Shown here: piece by piece, positions 9,401 to 17,633 of the stretch
How the letters are laid out: each line of letters starts with the position of its first letter
Position numbering within the stretch: the stretch's first letter is position 1
DNA from: Labia minor
Lineage: Eukaryota > Arthropoda > Insecta > Dermaptera > Spongiphoridae
DNA: 64,000 nt
Reading direction: 5' to 3'
Assembly: GCA_963082975.1 (NCBI GenBank)
Contig: OY720344.1
Span: 69,406,546 to 69,470,545, forward strand
The notes under the pieces: model-generated
Seen by the model: the letters and a program-made list of their open reading frames with translations, nothing else
Databases searched by the model: none
What the model was told of the DNA's origin: nothing
Made by a program: the position numbers and the translations under genes

Positions 9401-12400
9401 AAATACTTATTCTTCAAAAAAAATTTTAAAATATAATTAGGTAAATTAATAACCATAATTATTTATAAAAACTACAGGGTTTAGTACATATATTTCAAAA
9501 AACACAATATATAATCATTAAACTTTACTATAATGTATTTATTTGAAGTGTTTTAGCTCAACTAATTACTCAAAAAACAAAAATGGTTAAAATTTAATCA
9601 CAGCTTCCGAAGATGTAAATATTTTATAAAACCTTCTTATATGCACTATATAAATAATTTATAACATAGATTAATTGTTGAAATATAACTTTCTAATGTA
9701 GAGATTATTATTATTATCTTTATTAAAGGAATATTTTAATATTTTAAACGTGAAATAAATTGAATTTAATATTTATCAATTTGCTGTGTTTTTTTCAGAA
9801 GTTAAAAATTTATTCTATTTTCTCTAATTAATATGTTTAAAGATATTTTAACATATCGAACTTATAAATAATAATTATAATTGATTTTTAAAATATACAT
9901 TAAATTTAAAAATATTGTGAATGGATTGAAAAGGAAGGGGAAAATACATATTAACAAAATAATCTATGAATTTAATTAATGAGAAAAAATTTATAGAAAA
10001 TTTTATATTTAAAATGAATATATAAATTATATTTATTTCTAATAATATTTATTTTTTATTGATATCTACTTTTTTGCCTGCAACTTATGCAACCAATTAA
10101 CAAATATGATATTTGGGTTACATATGATTTATAATTATTATTATACCATATATCGAACATACTTATTAACAATATTGCATAAATTAAGAGTTAAGAACGA
10201 TATAAATATTAAATATAGAGTATCTATTTATTATTTTTATACATAATGACACTTTTAGTTTATAATTTTACATATTGCAGGCAGATTTAACAATTATATT
10301 TTCATATTTATTACAACTCTATAGTTTTATTGATCTATAAAAAAACATGATCCCCAGCTAATATTTTTTTTCGATTTTAGAGGGTAATACACTCCTAATG
10401 TTATTTTTATCTTAGAAATAAATAAATCTTTTCGTTTCTAAGTTTTTAATCATCGATTAATGCTAGTCTTAGTTTGTAAAATAATTTGTTTTTTCTTGCT
10501 CCATTTACGAAATACTTTGAGTTTCTTAATTTTCTTTGTATTCGTTTAAAATAGACTTAAAAATCTTTGATTTAGTTACTTCAAAAGACTGATTAGTGAT
10601 TTTATTAGTTAATATTATTAGATATAATTTAATTTTCATTTTAAATAAATATCAATTAAAGAAATTGTAAAAAATAATATATGTAGAATGTATTATATTA
10701 TATTAAAAACTAGCTGCTCAGAGCGCCGAAGGCGCTCTTCACACCTAAATGGGAGCTCCGCCCCCTGTACCCCCGAGTGGTACAAAGTATTTGGTTGAAA
10801 GTAGTAAAAGGTTTTCATCCATTTTGTTTCAATATAACATAAAACATTCATTTCTTTTTAAGTGTTTATTTAAAATATATTTTAATTTAATCAGTAAATT
10901 AATTATATATATTATTATTGTATATGTTATATCTATCTATCTATGTGGCTCAACGGTATGCACCCAGCCTATCGCAGCCTTCTCACTTTTATAACCCTAA
11001 CCTCGATTTAAATTCTTCTCAAATATTATCCTTCGTGATTATATTCAATTTTTCTGCATATTCAAATTCTACATTTTGTATATTAAGATTTTGTATGTTA
11101 ATACTGTTCTTCTTTGTTACTAAATATTTTTTCTTATCACTATTAATTTCAAACCCCATCGTCATTACAGACAGACAGAAAAGTGAAGTTAATAAAAAGC
11201 GTATAAAAATATATTTTAAAAATTAATAATAATTAATTTTTTAATAATATACAATTCTCATATATTTAATTTACTTATTTAATTATTAAATCTGTGATAA
11301 TAATATTTACTAAGGCCATTTTATTAATATTTATAAGATCTTATTTAAAGTTTAGTTTAATTTATATTCATAATTATTTTAAAAAAAGAGAGATAATTTT
11401 AAGTTAATAATATTTTTTCTCCTGAGTTAGAATTATTTTTTTTTTAATATATTAATGACTATATTTTTTCAGATTATCGGGACTGTCACCATTTATGGGC
11501 GAAACGGATGTTGAAACGATGGCTAACGTCACCATCGCCAAATACGATTTTGACGATGAAGTCTTTAATGATGTTTCTGAAGATGCCAAAGAATTCATTC
11601 AGCAGCTTTTACTTAAGGATAAAGAGTAAGTAGAAGCTTCCTGTAACAATTTCTGATTTTCTTCTTCTCTCTTTCTATTTCTCTCTTTCTCTTTCTCTCT
11701 CTTTTTTATACCATTGTCTCTTTTTTGAATCTAAATTTTTTCTATTTTTCTTTTAAATTTTTGCATGACTTAATTTTGTCTGTATTTCAAGTATCTCTTT
11801 TGCTCTTATAGTATATTTTAAGGTATGACAAAGGCCCGATTTGCTATTTTCGAAAAGAACAGTGTGTGCTCATTTATTATTATTCTTTTATTTCTCTATT
11901 AACGAAATGTCTTTCTTAAATTACTAAATTATAAAAAAAGATGTATAACACTTTTAAAAAAATAAACGTTACTTTGATTTTGATGTATTTTATACCATAA
12001 AAAAAATCAATTTAACTCTAAAATTATTTGCTTGATTTCAAAGAATACATAAACATTCTTGTATTGTACTCGTAGAACGTCTATCTAGGATTCTTAACAG
12101 TTTCATTGAGATAATTTACTTTTACAATTAAGTAATAAAAGTCTATTTGTTTAAATTACAATAGAAGAATTTCAACAAATATTTATTCAGGAATTTGCAA
12201 GACTATTGCCTGTTTATTTCCAATTTCAATGAACAAAATATCATCAATTTATATAAAAAAATTATAAATATATTTAATTTAATTTTTCAAAATATTTACT
12301 TATATAAACTTTTTATTTTTCAAATTAAATTAAAAATTAAATAAAAGATTTTATTTATTTATTTATTTCTTAAAAATATTTAAAAAAATGGTCAAATTAA

Positions 12401-17461: not shown

Positions 17462-17633
17462 CGCCCGAATGGCTGGGTCCCAATGTCTTCACCATCGCTG
17501 GTTAAACACTGGTTCTCTTGTCCCCCGACCACATTCAAAAGTTAAACTTAAACGATATGTGATCAAGAAAAGATGGTTACGTATAGTTAATACGATAATT
17601 GCCCTTCGAAGAATGGGTGCTGAACTTAATTAA
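17462..17633 (+). CDS. Strn-Mlck: Alternative last exon of the MLCK gene with calmodulin-binding helix
   Basis: After an acceptor (tctgattacag) the exon reads 56 residues to TAA. Its first base completes the same split codon (GA|C) left by the donor at 11625, so it can replace exon 14054-14876 without changing frame. It starts ARMAGSQCLHHRWL, homologous in position to [14 protein letters not shown] of the other exon (last helix of the kinase lobe). It then has a basic segment (VKLKRYVIKKRW) and WLRIVNTIIALRRM. In this helix W1, V5, I8 and M14 fit the 1-5-8-14 calmodulin-binding pattern of MLCKs. The protein ends soon after, at GAELN. This isoform should be autoinhibited and Ca2+/calmodulin-activated. 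Its codons are more AT-rich at third positions than the upstream kinase exons. Alternative splicing is inferred from phase and homology; no transcript was seen. Confidence 0.85.

What the first reader, a model, noticed from the sequence alone, without database searches (positions are those of the whole stretch)
11473..17633. Two homologous, phase-matched last exons: one calmodulin-regulated MLCK, one with a different tail
The donor at 11625 leaves a split codon (GA) that both 14054 and 17462 complete with C. Both exons then encode the same final kinase helix ([14 protein letters not shown] and ARMAGSQCLHHRWL). Only the second has the calmodulin helix WLRIVNTIIALRRM with the 1-5-8-14 pattern. 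Mutually exclusive last exons would give a Ca2+/calmodulin-controlled kinase and a form that may escape this control. The frames and phases are seen; the isoform choice and its effect are inferred.
Basis: partly seen in the sequence, partly recalled or inferred. Interest (0 to 1): 0.85.

Follow-up and report, generated by a model that had tools for sequence, protein, structure and literature searches.

The report
Contraction kinase with two alternative tails
A gene for a contraction kinase, probably from an insect, carries two alternative final exons, one predicted to put the kinase under calcium/calmodulin control and one without that switch, an arrangement already known in principle from a vertebrate relative but not yet shown in RNA here.

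Summary
Five kinase exons (439-11625) end in GA|gtaagt. Two acceptors, 14054 (exon A, 273 codons) and 17462 (exon B, 56 codons), complete the codon as GAC and supply the last helix of the kinase fold. A motif scan found no third such exon in the window.

The kinase is MLCK-family (best solved match MYLK4). Exon B's tail is similar to the calmodulin segment of the genome's canonical MLCK paralog on contig C6 (0 of 5000 shuffles as good) and of DAPK1 (0 of 1000); AlphaFold2 makes it one helix. Exon A's tail lacks a basic helix of this kind, is unique in the genome, and matched nothing significantly.

Best reading: alternative last exons giving a Ca2+/CaM-switched kinase (B) and one without that switch (A). 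Joining A to B would be out of frame. The same arrangement, in the same exon order, is published for vertebrate DRP-1/DRP-1beta. No RNA data were available and no insect collection could be searched; exon use, tissue choice and activity are inferred.

The parts
439..642 (+). kinase exon (GKFGTVYRV to [13 protein letters not shown]). Outside the window it is preceded by a candidate exon at G000:C1:69393343-69393433 (LEPSFPYRDVTIKRNVDMKDFFELQTEIG plus AG)
   Evidence: upstream exon picked by eye among 6 candidate donors, read
6839..6980 (+). kinase exon ([10 protein letters not shown] ... ILHLDLK)
8883..8978 (+). kinase exon (PENILCL ... [16 protein letters not shown])
9053..9156 (+). kinase exon ([13 protein letters not shown] ... 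GVICYVL)
11473..11625 (+). last shared kinase exon, ends with split codon GA before gtaagt; intron retention would give an immediate TAA
14054..14876 (+). alternative last exon A (proximal): final kinase helix plus a 259-residue tail without a basic calmodulin-type helix; contains a donor-like GCG|gtgagc at 14225/14226 (phase 0)
17462..17633 (+). alternative last exon B (distal): final kinase helix plus basic calmodulin-type helix KLKRYVIKKRWLRIVNTIIALRRM

Best explanation
The window holds the 3' end of an MLCK-family kinase gene. Exons A and B are alternative last exons sharing one donor (11625). Splicing to distal exon B gives a kinase whose C-terminus is a basic helix that binds Ca2+/calmodulin and, by analogy with MLCK and DAPK, blocks the active site until calmodulin pulls it away. 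Splicing to proximal exon A, with its own stop, gives the same complete kinase fold with a long, probably largely disordered tail in place of the switch: a kinase independent of calmodulin, controlled by other means such as phosphorylation or partners, or constitutively active. SHOWN here: exon frames, phases, B's tail similarity, absence of such a helix in A, wrong frame of an A-to-B join. INFERRED: use of both junctions, mutual exclusion, calmodulin binding, activity.
For: Frames and phases. Kinase identity, form B: MYLK4 317 bits, twitchin 268, DAPK1 260. B tail versus the C6 canonical MLCK tail, score 59, 0 of 5000 shuffles; A versus the same, 23, 961 of 5000. Net charge of the 21 residues ending at the Trp: B +8, A -1. 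B: one helix at residues 26-55 of 56, pLDDT about 95 over residues 31-50, no alignment used. The C6 paralog shares the donor phase and, by the same motif scan, has one helix exon in the 10 kb read after its donor, so the pair is not a general feature of the two paralogs. Published parallel: DRP-1 has a single alternative coding exon between its catalytic exons and its calmodulin exons that replaces the calmodulin domain, with mRNA and protein detected (abstract and passages).
Against: No transcript data. B's acceptor is the poorest of the seven in the window (pyrimidines 0.50 in -20..-5 against 0.62-0.88). Codon statistics are weak support at best: the annotated frame is the best of six for A after 14225 (by 26 bits, though its score is itself negative) and for B (by 5 bits), but not for A's first 172 bases, and the test also fails on a certain exon used as control (6839-6980) while passing on another (11473-11625). 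No relative of tail A was found, so no conservation supports it. The strongest amphipathic stretch of either exon is in A ([18 protein letters not shown], moment 0.57, net charge 0), and the low-confidence model of A has helices at 30-48, 120-146, 202-213 and 238-271, so some other autoinhibition or binding by A is not excluded.
Confidence: 0.68

Rival explanations
1. Exon A is the only last exon in use and B is a relic of an ancestral calmodulin exon, no longer spliced.
For: B's acceptor is poor in pyrimidines and lies 3.4 kb beyond A, whose acceptor is the richest of the seven.
Against: B keeps an open 56-codon frame next to sequence where 7-10% of codons are stops (14876-17400), and keeps phase, helix and the basic hydrophobic pattern. 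A relic in such AT-rich sequence should have decayed.
Confidence: 0.12
2. B is the regular last exon and A is not a terminal exon: it is spliced onward from 14225 (gtgagc, phase 0), or is a minor or non-functional exon.
For: Donor-like site in phase 0, the same phase as the intron that splits the calmodulin domain of the C6 paralog (read; site); codon statistics do not favour A's first part.
Against: Of 77 phase-0 acceptors tested between 14230 and 19800 none starts a convincing calmodulin exon; the best score, 20, is inside exon B itself, the next are 19. Joining 14225 to B gives 27 out-of-frame codons and a stop. The frame stays open from 14226 to the stop and is the best of six there.
Confidence: 0.1
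3. Tail A is a different autoinhibitory tail, like that of twitchin/projectin, so form A is inhibited and released by something other than calmodulin (force or phosphorylation).
For: phmmer extends the form A match to 1koa and 3uto into the twitchin tail; a helix is modelled at residues 30-48 of exon A at low confidence.
Against: Tail alone against twitchin: 221 of 1000 shuffles as good; against this genome's projectin: 1120 of 5000. No Pfam domain follows in the tail.
Confidence: 0.1

Closest known systems
Vertebrate DRP-1 / DRP-1beta (DAPK2) alternative exon, PMC3050894 (abstract and 12 passages seen)
   Same: One kinase gene; an alternative single coding exon with its own stop lies right after the catalytic exons and before the calmodulin exons; using it replaces the calmodulin domain with another tail. 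DRP-1beta keeps myosin light chain phosphorylation.
   Different: DAPK family, vertebrate; the calmodulin tail there is in further exons and the beta tail resembles ZIPk. Here the kinase is MLCK family, each exon also carries the last kinase helix, and tail A resembles nothing found.
Drosophila Stretchin-Mlck isoforms (Kojima et al. 1996; only its title seen, in the reference lists of PMC11338227 and PMC10058302)
   Different: The likely counterpart in this genome is the C6 gene (KTGNAIRAVGRM segment; an I-set match 29 kb upstream on the same strand). What the 1996 isoforms differ in was not read (paper not held).
Drosophila Sqa (spaghetti-squash activator), an Atg1-activated MLCK (passages of PMC4957615 and PMC3330011)
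   Same: An insect MLCK-like kinase acting on myosin light chain. That the window gene is its ortholog is my recollection of the sequence, tested by no call.
   Different: Sqa's exons and tails could not be examined; its paper (PMC3041946) is not held.
MYLK4 (2x4f), best solved match
   Same: Kinase domain, E 1.3e-93 for form B and 3.2e-92 for form A.
   Different: Aligned only to about the end of the kinase domain; its own tail and exons were not examined.

Membership tests
Ca2+/calmodulin-dependent MLCK (form B) | MLCK-type kinase domain with catalytic motifs | tested here: met
   Pkinase E 2.9e-69; MYLK4 best, above twitchin and DAPK1; HLDLKPEN, DFG and APE read. The first part of the kinase domain lies upstream of the window
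Ca2+/calmodulin-dependent MLCK (form B) | basic amphipathic calmodulin helix after the kinase domain | tested here: met
   1-5-8-14 pattern; +8 over 21 residues; similar to the C6 MLCK tail, 0 of 5000 shuffles; helix predicted
Ca2+/calmodulin-dependent MLCK (form B) | binds calmodulin and needs it for activity | not testable with these tools
   -
Ca2+/calmodulin-dependent MLCK (form A) | basic calmodulin helix after the kinase domain | tested here: not met
   Two 1-8-14 hits only, at the far C-terminus, net +3, moment 0.16-0.18; the most amphipathic stretch has net charge 0; no significant similarity to the C6 or DAPK1 calmodulin segments
Stretchin/titin-like MLCK with Ig and Fn3 repeats | Ig (I-set) or Fn3 domains upstream of the kinase | tested here: inconclusive
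   Of 150 I-set matches listed (150 of 695 candidates scored) one is on C1, at 55.9 Mb; of 147 Fn3 matches (150 of 442 scored) none is on C1. Weaker, unscored or more distant domains are not excluded; the ORF list (40 or more aa, GC 0.36 or more, plus strand) missed even the gene's own upstream exon
Twitchin/projectin-type kinase tail (form A) | significant similarity to the twitchin autoinhibitory tail | tested here: not met
   221 of 1000 and 1120 of 5000 shuffles as good
Alternative last-exon kinase isoforms (DRP-1 type) | two terminal exons behind one donor in the same phase, one with and one without the calmodulin helix | tested here: met
   on the DNA:
Alternative last-exon kinase isoforms (DRP-1 type) | both transcripts present | not testable with these tools
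   no RNA data

The most novel reading that the evidence does not exclude
One insect MLCK gene, separate from the Stretchin-type MLCK, alternates between a Ca2+/calmodulin-switched kinase and a calmodulin-independent, ZIPk-like kinase by choice of last exon: an arrangement reached independently of vertebrate DRP-1/DRP-1beta and made by duplicating the exon behind an old intron, each copy carrying the kinase's own last helix.
Probability: 0.4. Interest if true: 0.6.

Novelty: new member of a known kind. Interest (0 to 1): 0.45.

Why it matters
Whether myosin light chain phosphorylation follows calcium or other signals is set by the kinase tail. A gene that picks its tail by last-exon choice would let a tissue turn calcium control of contraction on or off without changing the catalytic domain. 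It would also be an MLCK-family parallel to DRP-1/DRP-1beta. The principle, however, is in print for that relative.

Tried and rejected
Tail A as a twitchin-like autoinhibitory tail: suggested by the extended alignments, kept only as a rival because the tail alone is no better than shuffles. Tail A as a split calmodulin exon completed downstream: no convincing candidate among 77 acceptors. Homology between tails A and B beyond the kinase helix: not found. The tails alone gave 0 hits each in the PDB at E up to 10 (short or low-complexity queries, so a weak negative). Relatives elsewhere: genome contigs gave one distant bacterial kinase (27% identity), viral contigs none (4 pattern matches, none confirmed). 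Poly(A) signals were not used as evidence: AATAAA/ATTAAA occur throughout this AT-rich stretch. The codon statistic is kept only as weak evidence, since it fails on one of two control exons. Structure prediction was run on each last exon alone, without an alignment; exon A gave mean pLDDT 47, so no fold search was made. Passages of PMC6686927, PMC5101276, PMC6005683, PMC7391215 and PMC11081514 were seen and gave nothing on kinase tails of insect MLCKs.

Full report
What was checked. The five shared kinase exons are 439-642, 6839-6980, 8883-8978, 9053-9156 and 11473-11625; each boundary has AG and GT and the spliced frame is open. Pfam reports a protein kinase domain for both assembled forms (E 8.3e-69 with A, 2.9e-69 with B). 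The donor leaves GA; exon A (14054) and exon B (17462) both begin with C. Exon A runs to TGA at 14874-14876, exon B to TAA at 17631-17633.

Is it chance? A scan of all AG dinucleotides on both strands in three phases for the last-helix motif found exon A and exon B, plus one extra AG 12 bases upstream of B that reads the same frame; 60 first-order Markov sequences of the same length gave 0.63 hits on average. The motif is thus only mildly rare; the weight comes from the agreement of motif, phase, position behind this donor, raised GC (A 0.55, B 0.42, against 0.15 just after A) and B's tail similarity. What the two exons share is the kinase helix only: 7 of 15 residues are identical, and the tails alone do not align (1351 of 2000 shuffles as good). 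DNA identity over the first 44 bases is 21 of 44.

Which kinase. Against solved structures both forms match MYLK4 best (317 bits for B, 312 for A), then twitchin (268, 262) and DAPK1 (260, 253). In the window's own genome (604 Mb, 71 contigs, window at C1:69406546-69470545) the paralog closest by identity is on C6 at about 1.298-1.300 Mb, 46-67% identical exon by exon; intronless kinases elsewhere reach more bits over longer stretches at 24-33%. The C6 gene has the canonical MLCK calmodulin segment, KLKKFIIRRKWQ and then KTGNAIRAVGRM across an intron, and an I-set match lies 29 kb upstream on the same strand (C6:1329093); I take it for the Stretchin-Mlck counterpart. Other relatives, named by me from the reading frames, are projectin (C10, 15.5 Mb), a DAPK-like kinase (C10, 19.3 Mb) and a Drak-like kinase (C1, 94.8 Mb). 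The window gene has a probable further exon upstream at C1:69393343-69393433, ending ...FFELQTEIG and AG before gtgagt, which would complete the glycine loop; I picked it by eye among 6 candidate donors. Among the 150 I-set and 147 Fn3 matches listed for the genome only one is on C1, at 55.9 Mb; both lists are capped, so Ig domains far upstream are not excluded. From recollection of the fly protein the window gene is probably the ortholog of Drosophila sqa; no call tested this.

The phase match explained. The C6 paralog uses the same GA|gtaag donor at the same residue, and the projectin frame ends in LLVKNKE there (splice site not examined). The intron is therefore likely old, and any exon copied or moved behind it would inherit the phase. 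In the 10 kb read after the C6 donor the same motif scan found one helix exon, so paired exons are not a general feature of these paralogs.

Tail B. The B tail aligns over 24 residues with the C6 MLCK calmodulin segment (score 59; 0 of 5000 shuffles reach it) and with DAPK1's (score 42; 0 of 1000; also inside the full-length alignment). It has the 1-5-8-14 anchors and a net charge of +8 over the 21 residues ending at the tryptophan; AlphaFold2 without an alignment makes residues 26-55 of the exon one helix. Unlike in C6, no intron splits it.

Tail A. The A tail is 259 residues after the kinase helix, rich in Ser and Pro, with 186 of 273 exon residues under pLDDT 50, no Pfam match and no second copy found in the genome. 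It has no basic calmodulin-type helix; its most amphipathic stretch, [18 protein letters not shown], has a larger moment (0.57) than any in B (0.41) but net charge 0. The model has four low-confidence helices, the last at 238-271 reaching pLDDT about 70. It contains an RRAS site and other RxxS and SP/TP sites, possible but untested regulatory sites. Codon statistics rank its frame first of six after 14225, by 26 bits but with a negative score, and not first for the initial 172 bases, which are 71% GC; B's frame is first by 5 bits. The same statistic fails on one of two certain exons used as controls (6839-6980) and passes on the other (11473-11625), so I give it little weight. A donor-like gtgagc at 14226 was examined: no downstream exon continues it convincingly, and joining it to B gives 27 out-of-frame codons and a stop.

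Mechanism. Proximal-versus-distal last-exon choice is the simplest reading: A's acceptor is the richest in pyrimidines of the seven in the window (0.88) and B's the poorest (0.50), so B would be used where A is skipped. Form B would be autoinhibited and switched on by Ca2+/calmodulin; form A would lack that switch. All of this beyond the anatomy is inference.

Comparison with the known. The same design is published for vertebrate DRP-1: an alternative exon right after the catalytic exons and before the calmodulin exons replaces the calmodulin domain, with mRNA and protein detected and myosin light chain phosphorylation retained (abstract and passages of PMC3050894). A 1996 paper whose title says that a single fly MLCK gene makes isoforms of differently regulated activity is cited in PMC11338227 and PMC10058302; it is not held and was not read. 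Sqa as an Atg1-regulated MLCK is described in passages of PMC4957615 and PMC3330011. I class the finding as a new member of a known kind: well-founded gene anatomy, interesting if transcripts confirm it, but not a new principle.

Noticed in passing
G000:C10 15.54, 15.74 and 15.90 Mb (L035, L033, L034): Three copies of a projectin kinase exon (213 of 213 bases covered, identity given as 100%) within 370 kb, plus a 41-base piece at 72.41 Mb. Listed I-set and Fn3 matches also cluster repeatedly on this contig (2.3, 8.2-8.3, 15.5-15.9, 65.9, 69.2, 72.1-72.4, 76.5 Mb). A giant muscle gene seems amplified, or the assembly is duplicated there.
   Followed up: partly
window 14054-14225: The first part of exon A is 71% GC in a window of 26% GC, with CpG near expectation (0.93); the cause is unknown.
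   Followed up: partly
window 3300-3375 and 10710-10800: Two similar GC-rich pieces in opposite orientation, with a short hairpin (gcgccgaaggcgc) close to ctagt, look like Helitron-type ends (read; the label is from memory).
   Followed up: no
window 16540-16780: GC-raised island between exons A and B with a B-box-like gttcgattcc on the minus strand, possibly a tRNA-derived SINE (label from memory); ARAGORN, run with the bacterial setting, found no tRNA in the window.
   Followed up: partly
window 20829-21560, minus strand: Part of a gene on the opposite strand, with a DUF5917 match (E 2.9e-24).
   Followed up: no
about 87 kb and about 23 kb upstream of the window (among L010-L019): Reading frames that look like Unc-76/FEZ (about -86.9 kb) and ribosomal protein S16 (about -23 kb), named from memory of their sequences.
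   Followed up: no
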